Positions 1-46,293 of a stretch of DNA of 48,368 nucleotides are shown here, piece by piece. Positions within the stretch are counted from its first letter, which is position 1, and every line of letters begins with the position of its first letter. Origin of the DNA: a virus; the IMG/VR virus record IMGVR_UViG_3300044961_001112, positions 1 to 48,368 of that record, one strand, 5' to 3'. The notes under the pieces were generated by a model that saw only the letters and a list, made by a program, of their open reading frames with translations, was not told where the DNA came from and searched no databases. Position numbers and translations under genes: made by a program.

Positions 1-918
1 TCAACGCGGATGAATCTGCCCGGGCATCCAGCCCTCGGCGCGCAGCAGCCCGGCCGCGCCCTGCCAGAACAGCCGGGTGGCCTCGGCGAAGGCGCGCTCG
101 GCGGGGCCGCGCGGGTCGATCTCGCGGATGCGCAGCCCGGCGGGGATGCCATGCGCCTCGGCCAGCCAGGCGCGCGCCTCGCGCTCGCCGCCGATCGCGT
201 CCAGCAGTCCGAGGGCGAGGGCCTGGCGGCCGGACATCACGCGCCCGTCGGCCAGTTCGCGCACCCGCGCCTCGGGCAGGGCGCGGCCGGCGGCCACGCG
301 CGCGACGAACTGCGCCTGCATGTCCTCGATCACGGCGGAGAGGGCGGCGCGGCCCTCCTCGGTCAGCGGGCGGAAGGGGCTGGGCTGGTCCTTGAGCGGG
401 CCGGAGGCCAGGGTCTCGGCGCGCAGGCCGAGGCGCGCCATCAGCTCCGACACCTCGAAGGAGTGCAGGATCACGCCGATGGAGCCGGTCAGCGTCGCCT
501 CGCGCGCGAAGATGCGCTGCGCCGGCAGGGCCACCATGTAGCCGGCCGAGGCGGCGGCGCCGCCCATCACCGCGACCACGGGCTTGCCGGCCTCGCGCAC
601 GCGCTGGATCGCGGCATGGAAGGCCTCGCCCCCGGCCACGCTGCCGCCCGGGCTGTCGATGGAGACGAGCAGGGCGCGCAGCTCGGGGTCGCGCGCCGCG
701 CGGTCGAGCTCGCGCAGCAGGCGGCGGTCCTCGCCGATCGTGCCCGAGAGGGTGAGGCGGCCCACATGCGCCCCGCCCAGCCACTCGCCCGCCGCCTCGG
801 GCCGGCCGGCGAGCAGGGCGAGCAGCGCCACCACGCCCAGCACGAAGGCCCCGCGCCAGAGGGCGAGGCGGCGCTTGAGGCGGCGGCGTTCCAGCAGGAG
901 ATCGGCTTCGAGGGACAT
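1..918 (-). CDS. sppA: Signal peptide peptidase SppA, short form (host)
   Basis: Membrane-anchored S49 serine protease that cleaves leftover signal peptides within the inner membrane. A hydrophobic anchor lies at about residues 24-42. The S49 core follows, with SIDSPGGSV, then GGAAASAGYM carrying the nucleophile Ser, and GPLKDQPSPF carrying the candidate general-base Lys. At 305 residues it matches the short SppA form rather than the 600-residue enterobacterial one. The start codon gives a positively charged N-terminus (LLLERRRLKRR) before the anchor. The stop codon is the first three bases of the window, so the gene is complete. It is the only clearly chromosomal protein gene here and marks the host side of the prophage junction. 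Confidence 0.93.
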   Translation of the reverse strand: MSLEADLLLERRRLKRRLALWRGAFVLGVVALLALLAGRPEAAGEWLGGAHVGRLTLSGTIGEDRRLLRELDRAARDPELRALLVSIDSPGGSVAGGEAFHAAIQRVREAGKPVVAVMGGAAASAGYMVALPAQRIFAREATLTGSIGVILHSFEVSELMARLGLRAETLASGPLKDQPSPFRPLTEEGRAALSAVIEDMQAQFVARVAAGRALPEARVRELADGRVMSGRQALALGLLDAIGGEREARAWLAEAHGIPAGLRIREIDPRGPAERAFAEATRLFWQGAAGLLRAEGWMPGQIHPR

Positions 919-1028
919 GGGATACGCCCCTCACATAGTCGGCCCCGCGCGGGCTGCGAACCCCGCCGCGCCGGTCGCGCCCCGGTTGCGCGCGCGGCGG
1001 CGGGGCGCTAAGAGCCGCCGCGTCTGGC

Positions 1029-1070
1029 GCCGACGTAGCACAGCGGTAGTGCAACCGATTCGTAATCGGT
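1029..1070 (+). pseudogene. 5' half of a tRNA-Thr(CGU) gene; candidate attL
   Basis: The sequence reads as an acceptor 5' strand (GCCGACG), a full D arm (GCAC/GTGC), and a full anticodon arm (ACCGA, loop TTCGTAA, TCGGT). No T arm or acceptor 3' strand follows; the next bases are unrelated. A tRNA cut just after the anticodon stem, beside a tyrosine integrase gene, is the usual footprint of integration into a tRNA. The matching 3' half (variable loop, T arm, CGTCGGC, CCA) should then lie at the right end beyond this window. It differs from the intact tRNA downstream in the acceptor and anticodon stems, so it is not a recent local duplicate. Confidence 0.7.
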
Positions 1071-1136
1071 TGCTGTGGTTGAGCGGGGTCGAAAAAGGCT
1101 AGGTTTTCTGCGGGTTTCCGGGCGGTTCGTCCGGCG

Positions 1137-1170
1137 TTTGGAATCCGACTCCGGGGCCATTTGGAATCCG
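1137..1170 (+). repeat. Two direct copies of TTTGGAATCCG
   Basis: An exact 11-base direct repeat lies at 1137-1147 and 1160-1170, start-to-start spacing 23 bases. It is between the broken tRNA half and the intact tRNA, on the presumed phage side of the junction. Repeats at such positions are often arm-type binding sites for tyrosine integrases. That role is inferred from position only. Confidence 0.45.
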
Positions 1171-1225
1171 GGGCTGCGGGACTGGTGAAGTTGAGGCGGC
1201 TGGGGTATCTCCCCGGTCGTCCTGG

Positions 1226-1300
1226 GCCGGGTTAGCACAGCGGTAGTGCAATCGATTCGTAATCGATAGGTCGCGAGTTCGATTCTCGCACCCGGCACCA
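1226..1300 (+). tRNA. tRNA-Thr, anticodon CGU
   Basis: A complete cloverleaf of 75 bases including an encoded CCA. The acceptor GCCGGGT pairs with ACCCGGC. The D arm is GCAC/GTGC, the anticodon stem ATCGA/TCGAT with loop TTCGTAA, and the T arm GCGAG/CTCGC with loop TTCGATT. The anticodon CGU reads ACG threonine codons. It lies between the disrupted tRNA-Thr half and the integrase gene, in sequence that is probably phage-borne, so it may replace the host gene broken by integration. The alternative is a second chromosomal tRNA-Thr or the scar of an earlier integration. Confidence 0.95.
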
Positions 1301-1324: not shown

Positions 1325-2506
1325 CTAGGGGTCCCGGGGCTCCGGCGCCGGAAGCGCCTTCGGCGGCGGCGGGAGTGCCTTGGCGGCCCGGCGCCCGCGG
1401 AGGTCTTCGCGCTTGCGGACGGCGGCCTCGGCGGCGGCGGAAGTGTTCCGGACGTAGCGATGGACGATCTGGACCGTCGTGTGGCCGGAGATCGACTGGA
1501 TCTCCTTCAGGTCTGCCCCGGCCTCTCCCATCTCGGTTAGGCCAGTGTGCCGAAGGTCCTTGAAGCGGACCTCCGCCGGGAGGCCAGCGTGCGCCCGGAT
1601 GTCGGCGACCAGGTGGGCCAGGCGGAACTCCGAAATGGCGACGCCCCGCCTGTCGGACGTGATGATGAGGGCGTCCGGGGCCCCTGGCGTCATCTTCGCC
1701 ATCTCCGCGGCCAGCGCCACCGAAGCGGGTGCCTTGATCTCCTGGCCGGTCTTCGACTGCCGGAAGACGAAGCGCTGGCCCTCGGCGTCCCAGGCGCTCC
1801 AGGTCATCTTCAAGACGTCCCCCGGGCGCTGGCAGAGATCGCGAGTCATGAGCGCGGCGAGCGCGATCGAGTGATGGCCCAGCGCCCGCGCCGCTGCGAC
1901 GAAGCGCCGGAATTCCTCCGGGCTCCAGACCCGGCCGCCGTAGGGCGTCGCCTTGAGCCCGGGCCGCGACCAGGGGTTTTCGTGGGGCGCGAGGCCCATT
2001 TTGCGCCCCCACTCGAACAGGCGCCGGCCCAGCGTGATCGCGGCGGAGGCGCGGCGCTCCCCCGTGCCCTTGGTGGCCTGCCGCGCCAGGATGTCCCGGA
2101 GGGCGAGGACGTGCTTGGGCCGGAGGTCTCGGACGAGCACCTGGCCAAGCGTGCGGTTGCCCTCCAGGGTCGTCTTCTCCAGCACGCCCAGGGCCCAGTC
2201 GTAATGGCTCCGCGTCTTCGCGCGCGAAGGGTAGTCCCGGCTCTTCTGGAAGGCGGCGATGAGGTGGGCGATGGAGCCCGGGACGACGGCCGCCGCTTGC
2301 TCCTCGCCCCGGCGCCAGGCGTCGAGCGCCCGGTTGTAGCCCTCGGCCTTGGCGACGGCCTCCGCCAGATCCCCGCCTAGAGGCGCGCGCGCGACGACGC
2401 GCGCCGCGACCGCCGCGGCGGGCGGGCAGTAGTAGTAGCGGGTCCCGGCCTTGGTCTTCCGGGCCTCCAGGTAGCGGACGACGGCCTTCATGTCGCCCAT
2501 AGTCAC
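1325..2506 (-). CDS. int: Tyrosine-type site-specific integrase
   Basis: Phage recombinase that joins attP to attB through a covalent DNA-phosphotyrosine intermediate. An N-terminal arm-binding and SAM-like core-binding region (about residues 1-180) precedes the catalytic domain. Catalytic residues are recognisable: Arg227 in CQRPGD, Arg319 and His320 in DLRHTGLTEM, His342 in SGHTT, and nucleophile Tyr351 in VHRYV. The 393-residue length is typical. The start is supported by a four-base ATGA overlap with the stop of the upstream excisionase-like gene. The 3' end points toward the candidate attL and tRNA-Thr, the standard position. It ends an operon with the RusA-like and HTH genes. Confidence 0.95.
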   Translation of the reverse strand: MTMGDMKAVVRYLEARKTKAGTRYYYCPPAAAVAARVVARAPLGGDLAEAVAKAEGYNRALDAWRRGEEQAAAVVPGSIAHLIAAFQKSRDYPSRAKTRSHYDWALGVLEKTTLEGNRTLGQVLVRDLRPKHVLALRDILARQATKGTGERRASAAITLGRRLFEWGRKMGLAPHENPWSRPGLKATPYGGRVWSPEEFRRFVAAARALGHHSIALAALMTRDLCQRPGDVLKMTWSAWDAEGQRFVFRQSKTGQEIKAPASVALAAEMAKMTPGAPDALIITSDRRGVAISEFRLAHLVADIRAHAGLPAEVRFKDLRHTGLTEMGEAGADLKEIQSISGHTTVQIVHRYVRNTSAAAEAAVRKREDLRGRRAAKALPPPPKALPAPEPRDP

Positions 2507-2772
2507 GCCGCCAATCCAAAGAGGGAGTCAACGGCGGCGGCCTGGGCGTCGGCGGACCGGCCCATCTGGGCGTCGGCCCAGGCGTCGAGGGCGGCCCGAT
2601 CCCACCGGCGGACGACGGGATGGGGCCGCGGGAAGCCTGCGGCCTCCAGGGCGGGGCGGCGCGCGCGGAAAGAGCGGACGGACAGGCCGAGCCAGGCCGC
2701 GACCTCGGGAGCGCCGAGGAAGCGGGGGGTGGGGGGAGCGGCGGACGGGGCCTGCGCGACCGGGGCGGTCAT
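2503..2772 (-). CDS. AlpA/excisionase-like helix-turn-helix protein
   Basis: Small DNA-binding protein of 89 residues. The segment FLGAPEVAAWLGLSVRSFRA is a MerR/AlpA-type winged helix-turn-helix start, followed by a second helix and the wing region FPRPHPVVRRWDRAALDAWA, as in prophage AlpA-like regulators and excisionases. It overlaps the resolvase gene and the integrase gene by four bases each (ATGA), so translation of the three is probably coupled. Position directly upstream of int suggests a recombination directionality factor. A regulator of int expression is the main alternative. Confidence 0.75.
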   Translation of the reverse strand: MTAPVAQAPSAAPPTPRFLGAPEVAAWLGLSVRSFRARRPALEAAGFPRPHPVVRRWDRAALDAWADAQMGRSADAQAAAVDSLFGLAA

Positions 2773-5965: not shown

Positions 5966-6226
5966 CTATGCGGGCGCGGGGCAGAGGAGGCGGTCCTGGC
6001 GGACCACGATCGCCTTCTTTCTCCAGACGTATGCGGTCATCCACGGCGAAGACGGCCGTAGCCCGCGCGGCGCCAGGGACGCCGCGGCCGCGGCGTCCGC
6101 GAGGCGCTGCACGGCGGCGGGGTCGTTCCAGGTCTCCGGGGCCTGTTCGATCGCCCCGACGGCGGCCCAGAGGGCCCTCTCCTCGGCGGGAGAGGAGCCC
6201 TCCAGCGGATGGGTCATGACGATCAT
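5966..6226 (-). CDS. Hypothetical protein
   Basis: An 86-residue protein that I do not recognise. It is mostly helical by eye (EERALWAAVGAIEQAPETW, AAVQRLADAAAAASLAPRG) and ends with a basic Trp-containing stretch (AYVWRKKAIVVRQDRL). The start is fixed by an ATGA overlap with the ArdC gene and by GGAGG seven bases ahead. It is translated directly after ArdC and before the exonuclease, so it belongs to the early minus-strand operon. No function can be assigned. Confidence 0.75.
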   Translation of the reverse strand: MIVMTHPLEGSSPAEERALWAAVGAIEQAPETWNDPAAVQRLADAAAAASLAPRGLRPSSPWMTAYVWRKKAIVVRQDRLLCPAPA

Positions 6227-7182
6227 TCCGCGGCCTCCGGGACGGAAGGCGCGGCCGCGCCGGCGGCGTCGAGGAGGAAGTCGGCGGCCTTCTGAGCGGC
6301 GCTGGCGATGTTCATGATCGCCCGCGGTTGCTCCCGGAGGACTTGGAGCCACGAGGCGACGTATTGCGCGTGGTCCTGGCGCTCTTCGACGCGATAGCCC
6401 CACGTCCCGAGCAGCATGGCCGCGCCCAACTCGGCGACGATCTCCTCCACCGCATAGGCGCGGTCCCCGAACCTGCGGCCGAACTCCCGCGCCAGGCGGG
6501 GCTGGGCGCCCGTGGCGTGGACGGCTTCGTGGGCGAGAACGGACGTGATGGCCCGCTGCGAGGCGAAGGCGGCCCGGTCCGGCATGTGGATGGCGTCCGT
6601 CGAAGGCCGGTAGAAGGCACGGGACCCGCCCCAGTGCAGGGCGACACCCATCCCGCGGATGGCGTCGAGCACGCGGACGTCGGGCGCCAGGAGGTCCGTG
6701 ATCGGCCGGGGCCCGGGGGCGTAGGCGTCGGGGTCCACGCCCTCGACCTGCCCGAGGTTGAAGACCGTGAACGCCCTCGCATAGAGGCGCGCCCGCGGCG
6801 GCTTGCGCCCGTCGCCGGCGTCGCCCTCCTGGTCCTCCCAGGGCGGCGTCGCGTGGGTGGCCTTCCAGAGGACGACCCTGGTTCCGCGCTCCCCCTGGCG
6901 GACCTTCCCGCCCGCGGCGCTCCACGCTCGAACGGTCCCCCAGACCGGCGCCCCGAAGCCGCGGACGGACTGGGCGATCCCGAGCAGCAGGACGTTGAGC
7001 CCGCGGTAGGCGCGGCCCTCGACGCTGCGGTGGGTGAGCGCGGCCTGGTTCCAGGGCATCTCATACCGCCCGCCGATCGCGCCCCTCTCGATGGCGTCGG
7101 CGATCGTGCTGGCGATGTCCCGATACAGGGCTTCCCGATCGGGCTTCCCGGCGGGGGCGGTGGCGTCTTCCGTCTTCTGCAT
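6223..7182 (-). CDS. ardC: ArdC-like antirestriction protein with metallopeptidase domain
   Basis: Proteins of this family are made early after DNA entry by plasmids and phages, bind single-stranded DNA and protect the incoming element. The N-terminal domain (about residues 15-145) has the family pattern PWNQAAL, YRGLNVLLL and the Trp-rich run around VWGTVRAW. The C-terminal domain is a zincin: HEAVH at 218-222 supplies two zinc-binding His and the catalytic Glu, and a following EEIVAELGAAML helix can give the third ligand. Length 319 is typical. AGGAGG lies five bases before the chosen ATG. It is the first gene of the minus-strand early operon, fitting immediate expression. Confidence 0.9.
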   Translation of the reverse strand: MQKTEDATAPAGKPDREALYRDIASTIADAIERGAIGGRYEMPWNQAALTHRSVEGRAYRGLNVLLLGIAQSVRGFGAPVWGTVRAWSAAGGKVRQGERGTRVVLWKATHATPPWEDQEGDAGDGRKPPRARLYARAFTVFNLGQVEGVDPDAYAPGPRPITDLLAPDVRVLDAIRGMGVALHWGGSRAFYRPSTDAIHMPDRAAFASQRAITSVLAHEAVHATGAQPRLAREFGRRFGDRAYAVEEIVAELGAAMLLGTWGYRVEERQDHAQYVASWLQVLREQPRAIMNIASAAQKAADFLLDAAGAAAPSVPEAAE

Positions 7183-7190
7183 GCTGGCCT

Positions 7191-7220
7191 CCTGGGCTGG
7201 TCGTCCAGCGCCAGCCCAGG
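7191..7220. promoter_or_regulatory. 10-base inverted repeat upstream of ardC
   Basis: CCTGGGCTGG (7191-7200) and CCAGCCCAGG (7211-7220) are exact inverted repeats around a ten-base spacer. The spacer extends the pairing inward (GCTGG-TCGT-CCAGC as an alternative stem). It begins a few bases upstream of the ardC start and touches its ribosome binding site, in the gap between ardC (minus) and the rightward genes. It could be an operator for the divergent region or an RNA hairpin controlling ArdC translation. Confidence 0.5.
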
Positions 7221-7231
7221 GGCCTGTCCTC

Positions 7232-7242
7232 GCCCCATCTCC
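7232..7242 (+). promoter_or_regulatory. Motif GCCCCATCTCC, copy 4
   Basis: Exact, and the first copy on the plus strand. It lies in the divergent gap and points at the small gene at 7307. Confidence 0.7.
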
Positions 7243-7306
7243 GGCCCGTCCCCACCCCAGAGGCCGCTGTGTTCCACGCCCCCAAGAAGACGACCGACGA
7301 GGACTA

Positions 7307-7528
7307 ATGCGCGACCGGTCCGCTCTCCCGCGCGGGGGGACGACCGGCTGCAGATGCGCCGTGCACTGCGAGCGCAACGGGCGCGCTGGAGGCGAGACTC
7401 TGCCCGTGGAGGCGCCGACCTTCGCCGTGGTGGTCGAGGGGCCGATGGAGCGCCAGGCCGACGTCCTGCGGGCGCTGCGGAAGGTGCTCTCTCCGGAGGT
7501 GCGGGTCCGGTCCGGGACGACGCGCTGA
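7307..7528 (+). CDS. Small hypothetical protein
   Basis: A 73-residue protein. The N-terminal part is Cys- and basic-rich (GCRCAVHCERNG, possible metal ligands CxC and HC). The C-terminal part resembles a short alpha/beta unit (PTFAVVVEGPMERQADVLRALRKVL). No good ribosome binding site precedes the ATG; a GCCCCATCTCC motif lies 64 bases upstream. Its stop overlaps the start of the methyltransferase gene (TGATG), suggesting coupled translation. This overlap is the best support for it being real. Confidence 0.55.
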   Translation: MRDRSALPRGGTTGCRCAVHCERNGRAGGETLPVEAPTFAVVVEGPMERQADVLRALRKVLSPEVRVRSGTTR

Positions 7529-8202
7529 TGCCTGCGCTGTCGTTCGGGGACTCTATCCGCGCCCGCCGGGTCCTGGGGAAGCGGGACAACCACGACCGCT
7601 GGGCGGACGAGAAGATCCGCCTACGGCTGGCGGCGCTCCAGGCAGTCCCGTCGGCGCAGGTGCTCGACCTCTACGCCGGCGGCGGGGAGATGTGGCGCCG
7701 GGCCTGGCGGCGCGCAGACGACTATCTCGGTGTCGAGATGTCTCTGAGGAAGGTCATGCAGCACCCCGCGGGGCGGGTCCTGCACTGGGAGGCCGAGCGC
7801 GCTCTGGCGACGCTGGACCTGGCACCGTGGACCGTCTTTGACCTGGACCCCTACGGGTCTCCCTGGCCCGCGGCCCGGGTCCTGGCGCGGCGGCGCCTGG
7901 CGCCTGGCGAGCGGATCGCCATCGTCCTGACTGATGGTTCTGTCCGCCGGGCGATGATCGGCAAGGTCGAGCAGAGGCTGGCCGATCTGGCGGATGAGCC
8001 GACCTGGCAGACGGGCGCGCACTGGCGCTGGGGCGCTATCTGCCGAGCGGCGCTGGAGCGTCTGGCCGAGCGGATGGGCGGGCGGGTGGCGGAGATGGAC
8101 GAGAGCCGGATCCATCACCAGCGCTGGGGCATCTGGCACGGGATGGCCGTGATCGAGGGACTACCGTCGGCGGCGCGGCAGTGCGGACAGACGATCAATT
8201 AG
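7528..8202 (+). CDS. Trm1-like SAM-dependent methyltransferase
   Basis: Class I methyltransferase of 224 residues. Motif I is VLDLYAGGGEM (about 45-55). Motif IV is FDLDPYGSPW (104-113). The DPYGSP form is that of Trm1 tRNA guanine-N2 methyltransferases, whereas DNA amino-methyltransferases usually carry (N/D)PP(Y/F/W). This points to a tRNA or other RNA substrate, though the protein is shorter than Trm1 and lacks its C-terminal domain. It is translationally coupled to the small gene upstream, and its last 42 bases overlap the convergent Vsr gene. A DNA-modifying role linked to the neighbouring restriction genes is the alternative. Confidence 0.7.
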   Translation: MPALSFGDSIRARRVLGKRDNHDRWADEKIRLRLAALQAVPSAQVLDLYAGGGEMWRRAWRRADDYLGVEMSLRKVMQHPAGRVLHWEAERALATLDLAPWTVFDLDPYGSPWPAARVLARRRLAPGERIAIVLTDGSVRRAMIGKVEQRLADLADEPTWQTGAHWRWGAICRAALERLAERMGGRVAEMDESRIHHQRWGIWHGMAVIEGLPSAARQCGQTIN

Positions 8203-8568
8203 ACCGCCTAGATCGCCGGCCCGCACCTGGCACTCCCAGACCACCTCGACGTGCCAGCCGGCCTCCCGGAGGGCGGCCTGGGCTGCGGCGTCGCGCTCCC
8301 GATTCCGGCGCAGTTTCGGCCCCCAGTATTCGAGCCGCGACCTTGGGACGTGCCCGAGGGTGCAGCCGTGCTGATGCCAGTAGCAGCCATGCACGAAAAC
8401 CGCGGCCCGGCGCCCGCCGAGCACGATGTCGGGCTTGCCCGGTAGGTCCTTGCGGTTGAGCCGGAAGCGGAGGCCGGCCGCGTGCAGGGCGCGGCGGACC
8501 TCAATTTCCGGGGTCGTGTCGCGCGAGCGGATGCGCGCCATCAAGGCGCCCCGCTCCTCGGGGGTCAT
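8161..8568 (-). CDS. vsr: Very short patch repair endonuclease Vsr
   Basis: Nicks DNA 5' of a T in T:G mismatches that arise when 5-methylcytosine deaminates, and so protects the sites methylated by the linked C5 methyltransferase. The protein begins MTPEERGALMARIRSRDTTP, the usual Vsr start. It then has the catalytic PDIVLGGRRAAVFVHG segment with its Asp and the zinc-site segment HGCYWHQHGC. At 135 residues it is full length. It overlaps the restriction gene by ATGA, so it is the third gene of that operon. Its 3' end overlaps the convergent methyltransferase gene by 42 bases. Confidence 0.94.
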   Translation of the reverse strand: MTPEERGALMARIRSRDTTPEIEVRRALHAAGLRFRLNRKDLPGKPDIVLGGRRAAVFVHGCYWHQHGCTLGHVPRSRLEYWGPKLRRNRERDAAAQAALREAGWHVEVVWECQVRAGDLGGLIDRLSALPRRRR

Positions 8569-9485
8569 GGCGTCCGCGCGTAGGGCGGGTTCGCCGCGAC
8601 GAAGAAGACGTCGCCGTAGCCAAGGTCCTTTGCCAGGCGCGCTTCCTCGGCGGACCTGACGCGATGCGAGACGAACTCGTCCGGGGTGCAGGGTGGCAGG
8701 CCAAGACGCCGGATGAGATCGGCGTCGTATTTTCCCGAGAGGAGCAAGATACCCTCCGCGGCCAGCGGGTCCCGGGCGCCGCCGTTGAACCGGATCCGCT
8801 TCATGTAGTCCAGCTGCGCCGCGACTGCCTGCACCACGTCCCGGTGGACCTTCTTGCCCTGGACGTGCCGGAACAAGCGGGCGAGGCGGTCCGTGCCGCC
8901 GCTTCCAGCAAAAATGTCCGCGACTACGGCGTCTGGCAGAGATGCCCAGAACGGAAGCGGGTAAGACACACCTTCCAAGAGCCACCGGATTGAGGCGAAT
9001 CCAGCCGAGTTCAGGCTTTGCTTGCCGTCGCGGTTCTTCCCGGGATTGAGGTGATGCGGATGGGCGACCACGATCCCGACATAGCAACGCCCGGCTTCCT
9101 CGTCTGCGGCGGTCAGAATGCAGGGGTGGCCGTGCGCCTCGGGCGGGATCATCCAGTTCTCGCCCATCGTGTGCTTGATGTCCGTCTCGATGCCCCCGAG
9201 AAGCAGGTCCAGGACCTTGCCCTTAGGCGCCTGCAGGTAGGCCCGGAGAAGGATCTCGATGCGGGTACCGATGTAGGTCTTCTCGACCTTTTCGAGGTCC
9301 GCGTAGGCCCGGCGCCGCGTGTTGGGCGTGTCGATCACGCCGTCGATGGCGTCCCGGAACATCTGCGGGATGTCCCGCAGGATGTCCTGGATCGGACGAG
9401 CGGCCAGGATGGCCCGCTCGACCGTGGAGATCGTCTTGAAGTCGGGATGGGCCGGGCCGTAGCTGGTGGGGGGAAGCGAGCGCAT
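8565..9485 (-). CDS. NaeI-family type IIE restriction endonuclease
   Basis: Homodimeric endonuclease of the NaeI family, whose namesake recognises GCCGGC and needs a second site as effector. Catalytic residues fit NaeI spacing: Glu77 (GTRIEI), Asp93 (KVLDLL), and Asp102 with Lys104 (ETDIKHT), that is E-x15-D-x8-D-x-K as in NaeI E70, D86, D95, K97. Further family segments are NWMIPPEAHGHPC, NPGKNRDGK and, in the C-terminal effector domain, DYMKRIRFNGGARDPL. Length is 306, against about 317 for NaeI. The ATG is preceded only by a run of Gs. It lies between its methyltransferase and vsr. The recognition sequence is inferred from the family. Confidence 0.9.
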   Translation of the reverse strand: MRSLPPTSYGPAHPDFKTISTVERAILAARPIQDILRDIPQMFRDAIDGVIDTPNTRRRAYADLEKVEKTYIGTRIEILLRAYLQAPKGKVLDLLLGGIETDIKHTMGENWMIPPEAHGHPCILTAADEEAGRCYVGIVVAHPHHLNPGKNRDGKQSLNSAGFASIRWLLEGVSYPLPFWASLPDAVVADIFAGSGGTDRLARLFRHVQGKKVHRDVVQAVAAQLDYMKRIRFNGGARDPLAAEGILLLSGKYDADLIRRLGLPPCTPDEFVSHRVRSAEEARLAKDLGYGDVFFVAANPPYARTP

Positions 9486-9536
9486 CCCCCCAAGGCTACG
9501 GCATAGGCCGCGCCGAGGTGAAGCGTCCCCGCGGAG

Positions 9537-10499
9537 CTAGGCGACAATCCGGACCGTCGAGCGGGCCGCGGCCTCCATGGCCTTCCGGATCTCGCCAGCG
9601 ACCGCGCGGGCGACCGGCGGCGGGAAGGCGTTGCCGACCTGGCGGTAGGCGTGCGTCTTCTTCCCGACGAAGCGCCAGTCGTCCGGGAAGCCCTGGATCT
9701 TGGCGACCATTTGCACCGTGAGCCTCGGCATACCGACGAAGTCGGGGCCCGGCGCCTCCTCGGCGATGCTCTTGCCGTTGACCCCGAGCTCTGCCCAGGC
9801 GCGCCGCGCCCGCGTCGGGCCCAGGTCCGGGCCACCGTGCTTCTTCGAGCCGCCCACGATGGTTGGGGCGATGTCGTTGGCCCGGCGCTTCCAGGCCTCG
9901 AGGCCGCGCCAGCCGTTGGCGCCCATCATCTCGCCCAGGACCTCGCCGACCGTCGGCGGGTTGAAGGGGTTAGGCGTGGGCCAGCGGAAATGGCTGGCGA
10001 CGGTGCTCTTGAGCGCGACGAAGATCACCCGCGGCCGCAACTGGGAGACGCCGTAGTCGGAGGCGTTGAGGAGGCGCCAGTCGACGACGTAGCCCATGCC
10101 GTTGAGGCGGCGGCGGATCCTGGTCCGGTAGTCCTCGAACTTCGGATCGAGGATGCCTTTCACATTCTCAAGCATCACCGCCGGCGGCCGGACTGTGCCG
10201 ATGAACTCCATTCCGACGCCGAAGAGGTCCCGCTCGTCTGCCTCGCCGAGTTGCTGCCCGGCGATGGAGAAGGGAGGGCACGGCAAGCCGCCCGAGACCA
10301 TGTCGACGCCTTTCCACGGGGCCGCCGGGAACTCGCGGAGATCGGCCTCGTAGACGTTCCATGTTGGACGGTTGAGCTGAAGCGTCTGCACTGCGTATGG
10401 ATCGTTGTCCATGAGTGCAACGTGCTCGATGCCGGCCTGTTCGAGGCCAATGGCCTCGCCGCCGCCGCCCGCGCACAACTCGACCGTCTGGATACCCAT
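9537..10499 (-). CDS. DNA (cytosine-5) methyltransferase
   Basis: Methylates C5 of cytosine and protects host and prophage DNA from the linked NaeI-like nuclease. All main motifs are visible: I ELCAGGGGEAIGLE, IV GGLPCPPFS with catalytic Cys74, VI ENVKGI, VIII QLRPRV, and X RQVGNAFPPPVA. A target-recognition region lies between VIII and X (about 190-280). The chosen ATG (MGIQTVELC) follows GGAGGGG by three bases and gives 320 residues; a longer in-frame start exists but would run across an 11-base inverted repeat. It is the first gene of a three-gene operon with the nuclease and Vsr. Confidence 0.94.
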   Translation of the reverse strand: MGIQTVELCAGGGGEAIGLEQAGIEHVALMDNDPYAVQTLQLNRPTWNVYEADLREFPAAPWKGVDMVSGGLPCPPFSIAGQQLGEADERDLFGVGMEFIGTVRPPAVMLENVKGILDPKFEDYRTRIRRRLNGMGYVVDWRLLNASDYGVSQLRPRVIFVALKSTVASHFRWPTPNPFNPPTVGEVLGEMMGANGWRGLEAWKRRANDIAPTIVGGSKKHGGPDLGPTRARRAWAELGVNGKSIAEEAPGPDFVGMPRLTVQMVAKIQGFPDDWRFVGKKTHAYRQVGNAFPPPVARAVAGEIRKAMEAAARSTVRIVA

Positions 10500-10509
10500 G
10501 CTCCCCTCC

Positions 10510-10544
10510 ATCGTCGCCGGTTCCGCCGGCGTGCCGGCGACGAT
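10510..10544. promoter_or_regulatory. 11-base inverted repeat with two GCCGGC sites before the methyltransferase
   Basis: ATCGTCGCCGG (10510-10520) and CCGGCGACGAT (10534-10544) are perfect inverted repeats around 13 bases. Two GCCGGC sequences, the NaeI site, lie at 10525-10530 and 10533-10538. The repeat is just upstream of the methyltransferase start, where self-regulation of restriction-modification operons commonly acts. Methylation of these sites could feed back on the promoter, or the repeat could fold in the leader RNA. Confidence 0.6.
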
Positions 10545-10684
10545 TCGGCCTCCCGCTCGTGGTGGAGAGGACTCCGCGAAGGCCAGGCCGGTCAAGGCCT
10601 GGCAGAGGGATGCGCCCGACGAAGTTGGGGAAAACTTAATGACCGGTCGGCAATCCTGGCGGCATTCCAGCCCAAGGAGGCACG

Positions 10685-45234: not shown

Positions 45235-45260
45235 ATGACCGTCATAGGACGTCATATGAC
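45235..45260. promoter_or_regulatory. ATGAC/GTCAT palindrome cluster before the relaxase-like gene
   Basis: ATGAC-C-GTCAT (45235-45245) and the perfect palindrome GTCATATGAC (45251-45260) are separated by five bases. The stretch is AT-richer than its surroundings. Inverted repeats upstream of mob genes are typical of relaxase binding and nicking regions or of their operators. An in-frame ATG inside the first repeat is possible but less likely than the GTG downstream. Confidence 0.5.
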
Positions 45261-45303
45261 GGCCCCGCGGGCCCCCTCCTCGACGACCGAGGAGAACACC
45301 GCC

Positions 45304-46293
45304 GTGCCTGCCCAGTTCTTGCGAATCGAAACCTACGCCCTCCGCCCCGCCGGCGGCCGGTGGAGCGTCGCCCAGGTCCTGAACGAGGCCTACCGGATCG
45401 CGGGGGACTGCCCCCACGTCGCGGCCCCCGACGCCCGGGTCCTGGAGGGCCCGGCGTCCCCCGGACCCATCCTGGCGGCCTGCGAAGAGGTGGCGGGCCG
45501 GGCGCGGGACGCGCGCGGGCGCCGCGCCCGCGGCTCGACGCCCATCCTCCTGTCCGCCGTGGCGTCCTACCCCGACGCCCTCTCCGGCGCCGACGAGGAG
45601 GCACGCGGGCGGATGGCGCTCTGGCGGGATCGGGTCGTCCAGACCTGGCGGGAGTGGTGGGGCCGCCAGATGGTGGCGGTGGTCGAGCACTGGGACGAGG
45701 CCCGCTACCACCTACACGGCCTGGTCGTGGCGCCCCTGCGGGCGGGGCGCGTGGCGATGGCCGAGATCTTCCCCGCCGTCGCGGCCCGCCAGACGGCCCG
45801 GGAAACTGGCCAGTCCAAGCGCCTCCAGGACCGGGCTTACAAGACGGGCCTCCGGGCCCTCCAGGACGCCTTCCACGCGGCCGTCTCGGCTCACGTCGGC
45901 CATGCCCGCCTGGGCCCCCAGCGCCAGCGCCTGACCCGCCAGGAGTGGCGCGCCCGGCGCGCCGAGGAGGAGCGTCTGGCAGCCCGTGCGCGGTGCCTGG
46001 ACGAGCGGGAGCGGGCCATGCGGGAGATGGACGCCTACGCCGCCCTTGCCGCCGCCGAAGGCGCCCGCCGCCGCGCGGAAGACGCCGAGGAACGAGCCCG
46101 CCGTGCCGAGGAACGAGCGGCCGCCGCCGAGGCCGAGGCGGCCCGGGGACGAGAGGCCCTGGCCCTCCTCGAGCGCGCGCGGCGCGCCGCGGACGAGATC
46201 GAGGCCCTGGGCGGCTGGCGAGCGTCCCGGACCCCCGCCGAGCGCGAGGCGCGCGTCATCGACCGGCTGCGGGCGCTGTCCGCCGCCCGCTAA
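45304..46293 (+). CDS. MobV-like relaxase/mobilisation protein
   Basis: A 329-residue protein. The N-terminal half resembles MobV (Pre/Mob) relaxases, which nick plasmid DNA at oriT: FLRIETYALRPAGGRWSVAQ opens the domain, and the metal-binding motif is HWDEARYHLHG (His129, Asp131, Glu132, His136, His138), the HxDE...HxH form. The nucleophile His of motif I is not evident; VLNEAYR stands in its place. From residue 200 the protein is a long charged coiled coil (RRRAEDAEERARRAEERAAA). The GTG start after GAGGAG leaves the palindromes in the leader. A replication initiator or recombination role is an alternative. Confidence 0.65.
   Translation: MPAQFLRIETYALRPAGGRWSVAQVLNEAYRIAGDCPHVAAPDARVLEGPASPGPILAACEEVAGRARDARGRRARGSTPILLSAVASYPDALSGADEEARGRMALWRDRVVQTWREWWGRQMVAVVEHWDEARYHLHGLVVAPLRAGRVAMAEIFPAVAARQTARETGQSKRLQDRAYKTGLRALQDAFHAAVSAHVGHARLGPQRQRLTRQEWRARRAEEERLAARARCLDERERAMREMDAYAALAAAEGARRRAEDAEERARRAEERAAAAEAEAARGREALALLERARRAADEIEALGGWRASRTPAEREARVIDRLRALSAAR

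What the first reader, a model, noticed from the sequence alone, without database searches (positions are those of the whole stretch)
1029..1300. Integration seems to break a tRNA-Thr, while an intact tRNA-Thr(CGU) lies beside it on the phage side
Seen: a tRNA-Thr 5' half ends exactly after the anticodon stem, then 155 unrelated bases with an 11-base direct repeat, then a perfect tRNA-Thr with different acceptor and anticodon stems, then int. Known: integrases that use tRNA genes normally restore the gene with a phage-carried end. Inferred: here the phage may carry a whole replacement tRNA. The alternative is a scar of an older insertion next to the true target.
Basis: partly seen in the sequence, partly recalled or inferred. 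Interest (0 to 1): 0.65.

Follow-up and report, generated by a model that had tools for sequence, protein, structure and literature searches.

The report
Prophage breaks tRNA, brings its own
A prophage has inserted into the middle of its bacterial host's only known gene for one threonine tRNA, destroying it, and carries a complete replacement of that tRNA right behind the break; this is the recently described strategy of tRNA-dependent lysogeny, found here in a new bacterial family and repeated at the same gene by an unrelated mobile element.

Summary
The left flank is host chromosome (93.6% identical to Rubritepida flocculans over 1070 bases). In two empty-site relatives that position holds one intact tRNA-Thr(CGU) and no second tRNA. 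In the window the gene is identical up to base 1070, the end of the anticodon stem, and then becomes phage DNA. The intact tRNA at 1226-1300 is not the host gene rebuilt: it is 75/75 identical to a tRNA-Thr(CGU) downstream of a probable nrdJ gene in ten other Acetobacteraceae. Related integrases at tRNA-Thr(CGU) rebuild the gene normally, with a 45-bp repeat starting in the anticodon loop; here the shared block right of the loop is only 12 bp. The right junction lies outside the record, but a relative (G303) supplies a replicate with both ends: an unrelated 25-kb integrative element split the same gene across an 11-bp core and carries the only intact tRNA-Thr(CGU) found there. It works like tRNA-dependent lysogeny (mycobacteriophages, 2024; one Sinorhizobium report). 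What may be new is expression: the phage tRNA has no recognisable promoter, but lies co-directionally behind the host tRNA's intact promoter. Function is inferred, not tested.

The parts
1..918 (-). host chromosomal gene, SppA-type signal peptide peptidase (S49); left flank of the prophage
   Evidence: PF01343; 95% protein identity to R. flocculans; DNA alignment to R. flocculans covers 1-1070
986..1015 (+). host tRNA-Thr promoter, TTGCGC (986-991), 16-bp spacer, CTAAGAGC (1008-1015), left intact by the integration
   Evidence: score 8.7 with a model trained on other Rubritepida tRNA promoters (their median 8.7-8.9); 0 of 200 shuffles reach it
1029..1070 (+). 5' half of the host tRNA-Thr(CGU) gene, cut off after the anticodon stem
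   Evidence: identical over 42 nt to the intact gene in L003 and L004
1051..1073 (+). attL core: perfect inverted repeat GCAACCGATT-CGT-AATCGGTTGC, left arm host, last bases phage; proposed core-type integrase sites
   Evidence: 10-bp arms, 100% complementary; the G303 element's attL has the same TTCGTAATCGGTTG
1059..1065 (+). TTCGTAA, anticodon loop; inferred 7-bp strand-exchange region
   Evidence: shared blocks of two standard related elements at a tRNA-Thr(CGU) begin at this loop (L116, L117)
1071..1225 (.). phage attachment arm between the broken half and the replacement tRNA
   Evidence: no similarity to the empty sites; no terminator and no tRNA-type promoter found
1137..1147 (+). arm-type site candidate 1, TTTGGAATCCG
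   Evidence: exact direct repeat; related integrases have TTCCAA repeats (same hexamer in the other orientation) beside their tRNA
1160..1170 (+). arm-type site candidate 2, TTTGGAATCCG
   Evidence: as candidate 1; start-to-start spacing 23
1226..1300 (+). phage-borne intact replacement tRNA-Thr(CGU) including CCA
   Evidence: ARAGORN, Rfam 72.7 bits, folding z = -4.3; 75/75 identical to chromosomal copies in 10 other Acetobacteraceae genomes
1325..2506 (-). tyrosine integrase, the enzyme inferred to have made the junction at 1059-1070
   Evidence: PF00589; CQR, SKTG, LRHT, SGH and Y351 motifs present by eye; relatives at tRNA-Thr(CGU) and tRNA-Lys
2503..2772 (-). 89-aa ORF beside int, possibly the excisionase (inference from position and size only)
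   Evidence: no Pfam match

Best explanation
This is a prophage using the strategy called tRNA-dependent lysogeny. Its tyrosine integrase recombines a short attP core with the anticodon stem-loop of the host tRNA-Thr(CGU) gene beside sppA. [quoted passage not shown] right junction inferred). The phage makes good the loss with a complete tRNA-Thr(CGU), of a type found in other Acetobacteraceae, placed 155 bases inside the left junction and in the same direction as the broken gene. That this tRNA is made and decodes ACG in the lysogen is inferred. Because no tRNA-type promoter is seen in front of it while the host promoter remains intact about 210 bases upstream without an intervening terminator, it is probably transcribed at least partly from the host gene's own promoter (inferred).
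For: Empty sites hold one intact gene; the window matches them to base 1070 and then stops. The intact tRNA is foreign to R. flocculans and identical to the gene of ten other genomes. R. flocculans has exactly one tRNA-Thr gene each for CGU, GGU and UGU among the 43 tRNA genes found, so the broken gene is its only CGU copy. Related integrases in G018 and G379 (32-35% identical) sit beside an intact tRNA-Thr(CGU), in G379 the sppA-linked one, and their second repeat runs from the anticodon loop to CCA, rebuilding the gene; here the identity right of the loop is 12 bp. Independent replicate G303: same sppA-linked gene split, attL GATTCGTAATC|GGTTG, attR AACC|GATTCGTAATC|AGTAGG, whole tRNA-Thr(CGU) 90 bp after the core, a tyrosine integrase with an arm-binding domain at the far end; rejoining the flanks restores one tRNA-Thr(CGU), and no other CGU tRNA-Thr was found in that genome. 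Candidate third case: a T7-like phage contig (L053/L054) with whole tRNA-Thr(CGU) near int and a tRNA-like core, TAGTGCAGCAGCTTCGTAATTAGG, 113 bp upstream (18/24 matches; shuffle maximum 16). Mechanism proved elsewhere: PMC10865867.
Against: The right junction is not in the record, so the exact attP core and the fate of the 3' half are unknown for this phage. No free attP form was found. Host tRNA-Thr(UGU) may read ACG, so the broken gene may not be strictly essential. The host of this contig is known only from 1 kb of flank and could hold another copy. The orientation of the arm-like repeats is opposite to that in the standard relatives. Expression and function were not tested.
Confidence: 0.86

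Rival explanations
1. Two events: an older element broke the host tRNA and left the 155-base scar; the present prophage then integrated in the ordinary way into the intact tRNA at 1226-1300, which would be its true attL.
For: The order intact tRNA, then convergent int, looks like an ordinary attL, and relatives L029, L039 and L067 have exactly that order.
Against: Only 24 bases separate tRNA and int and hold no repeats, whereas relatives L020, L027 and L029 have TTCCAA arm-like repeats downstream of the tRNA. The arm-like repeats here lie next to the broken half. The older element would itself have had to bring the foreign whole tRNA, so the phenomenon would only be moved to another element. 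G303 shows the same half-plus-whole order made by a different integrase.
Confidence: 0.08
2. A host with two tandem tRNA-Thr(CGU) genes, the first broken by a small deletion or insertion unrelated to the phage.
For: Both tRNAs are codirectional and 155 bases apart.
Against: Empty sites of the closest relatives hold one gene only, and the sequence after it is a different host gene, not the window's. The second tRNA belongs to a different acceptor-stem type.
Confidence: 0.03
3. Assembly chimera joining host and phage at similar sequence.
For: The record is metagenomic and ends without a right junction.
Against: The join lies at the end of the anticodon stem, at the core predicted by related integrases, and the phage side completes an inverted repeat. 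The longest exact match between the two tRNA genes is about 19 bases. The same join sequence (TTCGTAATCGGTTG) recurs in G303.
Confidence: 0.03

Closest known systems
tRNA-dependent lysogeny of mycobacteriophages and Gordonia phages (Fionnbharth, LeBron, Gaia and others; PMC10865867)
   Same: Tyrosine integrase, attB inside a host tRNA gene, short common core (8-17 bp) that does not rebuild the gene, phage-borne tRNA of the same isotype; relatives with rebuilding integrases exist.
   Different: Host family, tRNA-Thr(CGU), and geometry: in Fionnbharth the tRNA is about 2.8 kb from int, on the opposite strand, with its own strong promoter; here it lies 155 bp inside attL, co-directional with the broken gene, with no tRNA-type promoter recognised. 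Requirement for lysogeny not tested here.
Lo5R7ANS-like prophages in tRNA-Leu(UAG) of Sinorhizobium meliloti AK21 and RU11/001 (PMC11476347)
   Same: Alphaproteobacterial host; gene split in its centre; prophage carries a same-isotype tRNA resembling that of other alphaproteobacteria.
   Different: Podovirus, tRNA-Leu. In phage Lo5R7ANS the core-like GATTTAGGTTCC lies just downstream of the phage tRNA, which would put that tRNA on the attR side, not behind the host promoter (inference).
Ordinary tRNA-targeting integrases that rebuild the gene (L029/G379 and L039/G018 here)
   Same: Related integrase, tRNA-Thr(CGU), strand exchange in the anticodon loop.
   Different: Their attP carries the whole 3' half of the tRNA, so attL is a functional gene and no extra tRNA is carried.
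Lactobacillus johnsonii prophage Lj965, as cited in PMC10865867
   Same: tRNA not rebuilt; cognate tRNA in the prophage.
   Different: Not examined here; known only from that citation.

Membership tests
tRNA-dependent lysogeny (PMC10865867) | phage-encoded tyrosine integrase | tested here: met
   PF00589 E 3.3e-17; motif residues present
tRNA-dependent lysogeny (PMC10865867) | attB overlaps a host tRNA gene | tested here: met
   alignment to two empty sites breaks at base 1070 inside tRNA-Thr(CGU)
tRNA-dependent lysogeny (PMC10865867) | short common core, host tRNA not rebuilt at attL or attR | tested here: inconclusive
   attL: not rebuilt, identity right of the loop only 12 bp. attR: outside the record for this phage. 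Met at both ends in the independent G303 element, 11-bp core
tRNA-dependent lysogeny (PMC10865867) | element carries a complete tRNA of the same isotype | tested here: met
   tRNA-Thr(CGU) 1226-1300
tRNA-dependent lysogeny (PMC10865867) | the disrupted host tRNA is a single-copy, needed gene | tested here: inconclusive
   single copy in R. flocculans, but a tRNA-Thr(UGU) that may also read ACG is present; the window's own host genome is not held
tRNA-dependent lysogeny (PMC10865867) | phage tRNA required for stable lysogeny (mutants give clear plaques) | not testable with these tools
   needs cultured phage and host
tRNA-dependent lysogeny (PMC10865867) | arm-type sites flanking the attP core | tested here: inconclusive
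   two 11-bp repeats on the attL side; other side not in the record. G303 has CAGACAAC repeats near both ends
ordinary tRNA-rebuilding integration | host 5' half joined to a phage-borne 3' half giving a functional tRNA at the junction | tested here: not met
   junction at 1070 leads into unrelated sequence; ARAGORN finds no tRNA in 901-1225

The most novel reading that the evidence does not exclude
The replacement tRNA is a promoterless passenger that becomes expressed only after integration, by capturing the promoter of the very tRNA gene the phage destroys. Loss and replacement would then be coupled in a single recombination step, and the host's own tRNA control would be kept. The geometry (whole tRNA 90-155 bp behind the broken half, same direction) recurs in an unrelated mobilisable element in G303 and possibly in a T7-like phage, which would make it a convergent design used beyond phages.
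Probability: 0.35. Interest if true: 0.68.

Novelty: new member of a known kind. Interest (0 to 1): 0.52.

Why it matters
It extends tRNA-dependent lysogeny, proved so far in actinobacteriophages, to Acetobacteraceae and to tRNA-Thr(CGU), and shows a relaxase-bearing integrative element (G303) doing the same at the same host gene with an unrelated integrase. Such elements leave the bacterium dependent on the element for a tRNA, which works like an addiction module and replaces a core host gene with one of another lineage's type. The promoter-capture geometry gives a simple test of how the replacement is expressed.

Tried and rejected
Close relatives of the integrase in IMG/VR: none. Relatives of ORF 45235-46293 near the right end: none; TerL relatives L126 (100%) and L127 (86%) come from the same or a close phage but are 17-18 kb contigs that, by TerL position, should not reach the attachment region. 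Exact searches for the attP or spacer sequence in other viral contigs: none. A second copy of the 3' half or of the arm repeat inside the window: none. Sigma-70 consensus scan of 900-1420: no promoter and no terminator; a model trained on Rubritepida tRNA promoters was used instead. Family-wide scan for half plus whole tRNA-Thr(CGU): only G303 among 387 genomes, but the gap range used (about 111-171 bases between motif blocks) would have missed the window's own spacing of 175, so this is a lower bound. The idea that the intact tRNA marks an ordinary attL was rejected on spacing and repeats. Rhizobium phage P10VF was fetched by a wrong accession guess. Williams 2002 is not held in the library.

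Full report
What was checked. The window is an IMG/VR virus record of 48,368 bases. Its left end is host chromosome: an SppA-type peptidase gene (1-918, minus strand; PF01343) whose protein is 95% identical to that of Rubritepida flocculans DSM 14296. DNA identity to R. flocculans is 93.6% over bases 1-1070 and stops there. Most of the rest is a tailed phage: terminase, portal, major head, tape measure, tail and lysis genes.

The broken gene is the host's. In R. flocculans (L003) and in Roseococcus MAG SKW89 (L004) the same place, beside sppA, holds one intact tRNA-Thr(CGU), GCCGACG...CGTCGGCACCA, followed by another host gene. The window is identical to it for 42 nt, through the anticodon stem ACCGA-TTCGTAA-TCGGT, and then reads TGCTGTGG.... 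ARAGORN finds no tRNA in bases 901-1225.

The intact tRNA at 1226-1300 came from elsewhere. It scores 72.7 bits with Rfam and is 75/75 identical to a tRNA-Thr(CGU) in ten other Acetobacteraceae genomes, where it lies downstream of a gene end that I read as nrdJ by eye. R. flocculans lacks that sequence. It has 43 detected tRNA genes, with exactly one tRNA-Thr each for CGU, GGU and UGU; ACG codons are common in the phage's own genes (22 per 1000).

How ordinary relatives do it. The integrase (1325-2506) has no close relative in IMG/VR, but 30-39% relatives in Acetobacteraceae lie beside intact tRNA-Lys, tRNA-Thr(CGU) and other tRNA genes. In G379 the relative sits at the very same site, sppA then tRNA-Thr(CGU) then int. 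In G379 and G018 a second copy of the tRNA 3' part was found; the shared block begins at the anticodon loop TTCGTAA and runs to CCA, so the gene is rebuilt (in G379 that second copy is on another contig). The relatives L020, L027 and L029 carry three TTCCAA repeats each downstream of the tRNA. In the window the block right of the loop is only 12 bp. Arm-like repeats (TTTGGAATCCG twice) lie between the half gene and the whole tRNA, and only 24 bases without repeats separate the whole tRNA from int. The phage bases after the junction extend the stem into a perfect 10-bp inverted repeat, GCAACCGATT-CGT-AATCGGTTGC, as expected of core-type integrase sites around a 7-bp exchange region (inference).

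An independent replicate with both ends. Another genome of the same genus group, G303, has the sppA-linked tRNA-Thr(CGU) split by about 25 kb. attL reads ...AACT-GATTCGTAATC-GGTTGTAAG; attR reads ...GGAAACC-GATTCGTAATC-AGTAGGTC...GTCGGCACCA. The common core is 11 bp and the inferred attP is AACCGATTCGTAATCGGTT, palindromic and with the same GGTTG as in the window. Ninety bases after the core lies a whole tRNA-Thr(CGU) with different stems. Rejoining the flanks in a script restores a single tRNA-Thr(CGU). A pattern scan finds no other CGU tRNA-Thr in G303, so that bacterium appears to live on the element's tRNA. The element has a tyrosine integrase with an arm-binding domain, a relaxase and two cytosine methylases, so it looks like a mobilisable element rather than a phage. 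Its integrase is not recognisably related to the window's beyond the general family. In the G303 element and the window alike the element's tRNA has an anticodon stem different from the recombining core, which may keep the integrase from acting on it (inference).

A candidate third case. Two IMG/VR contigs of a T7-like temperate phage (L053, L054) carry a whole tRNA-Thr(CGU), in L053 between int and the RNA polymerase gene. In L053, 113 bases upstream of it lies TAGTGCAGCAGCTTCGTAATTAGG, matching the tRNA in 18 of 24 positions with correct spacing; the maximum in 30 shuffles was 16. No integrated form was seen.

Expression. A promoter model trained on R. flocculans tRNA genes other than this one scores the host promoter in front of the broken half at 8.7 (tRNA median 8.7-8.9; 0 of 200 shuffles) and the best site in the 155-base spacer at 5.3 (75 of 200 shuffles), while the same tRNA in its other hosts has a promoter scoring 9.4-9.5. 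No terminator-like site lies between. The simplest reading is that the replacement is transcribed from the captured host promoter. This is weaker than the rest: about a quarter of real tRNA genes score below 6.3 with this model, the G303 host promoter scores only 5.6, and L053 has a moderate site of its own (7.4).

Comparison with the known. The design matches tRNA-dependent lysogeny, shown genetically for mycobacteriophages Fionnbharth and others: short core of 8-17 bp, no rebuilt tRNA, same-isotype phage tRNA required for lysogeny (PMC10865867). In the alphaproteobacterium Sinorhizobium meliloti two Lo5R7ANS-like prophages split tRNA-Leu(UAG) and carry a tRNA-Leu like that of Octadecabacter (PMC11476347). 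The geometry differs: in Fionnbharth the tRNA lies about 2.8 kb from int on the opposite strand with its own promoter; in Lo5R7ANS the core-like sequence GATTTAGGTTCC lies just downstream of the phage tRNA, putting that tRNA on the attR side.

Verdict. It works like tRNA-dependent lysogeny and meets the defining features that could be tested, with two gaps: the right junction of this phage, and any experiment. It is a new member of a known kind, made more interesting by an unrelated element that does the same at the same host gene and by the possible promoter capture.

Noticed in passing
L151/L152 (G303:C23:27057-52317): A roughly 25-kb element with tyrosine integrase, relaxase and two C5 cytosine methylases splits the sppA-linked tRNA-Thr(CGU) and carries the only intact tRNA-Thr(CGU) found in that genome.
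   Followed up: yes
L053 2964-3190 (IMGVR_UViG_3300033571_003874): T7-like temperate phage with a whole tRNA-Thr(CGU) near int and a tRNA-like core 113 bp upstream; likely another user of the same strategy.
   Followed up: partly
window 1217-1224 and 1312-1319: An 8-bp direct repeat TCGTCCTG flanks the replacement tRNA; it could be a trace of how the tRNA was captured, or chance.
   Followed up: no
window 8565-10595: The prophage encodes an NaeI-like restriction endonuclease (PF09126) next to a C5 cytosine methylase (PF00145), and an ArdC-like protein (PF08401/PF18818) at 6223-7593.
   Followed up: no
L120 8569-8690 (Mesorhizobium phage Lo5R7ANS): GATTTAGGTTCC, matching a tRNA-Leu(UAG) anticodon region, lies about 20 bp after the phage tRNA-Leu, with GTGACAAA repeats on both sides; a probable attP consistent with the Sinorhizobium report.
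   Followed up: partly
L154 (G126:C8:44083-44155 and 59157-59231): Two tRNA-Thr(CGU) calls about 15 kb apart on one strand beside sppA; an intact gene plus a 3' repeat, consistent with ordinary gene-rebuilding integration at the same hot spot.
   Followed up: partly
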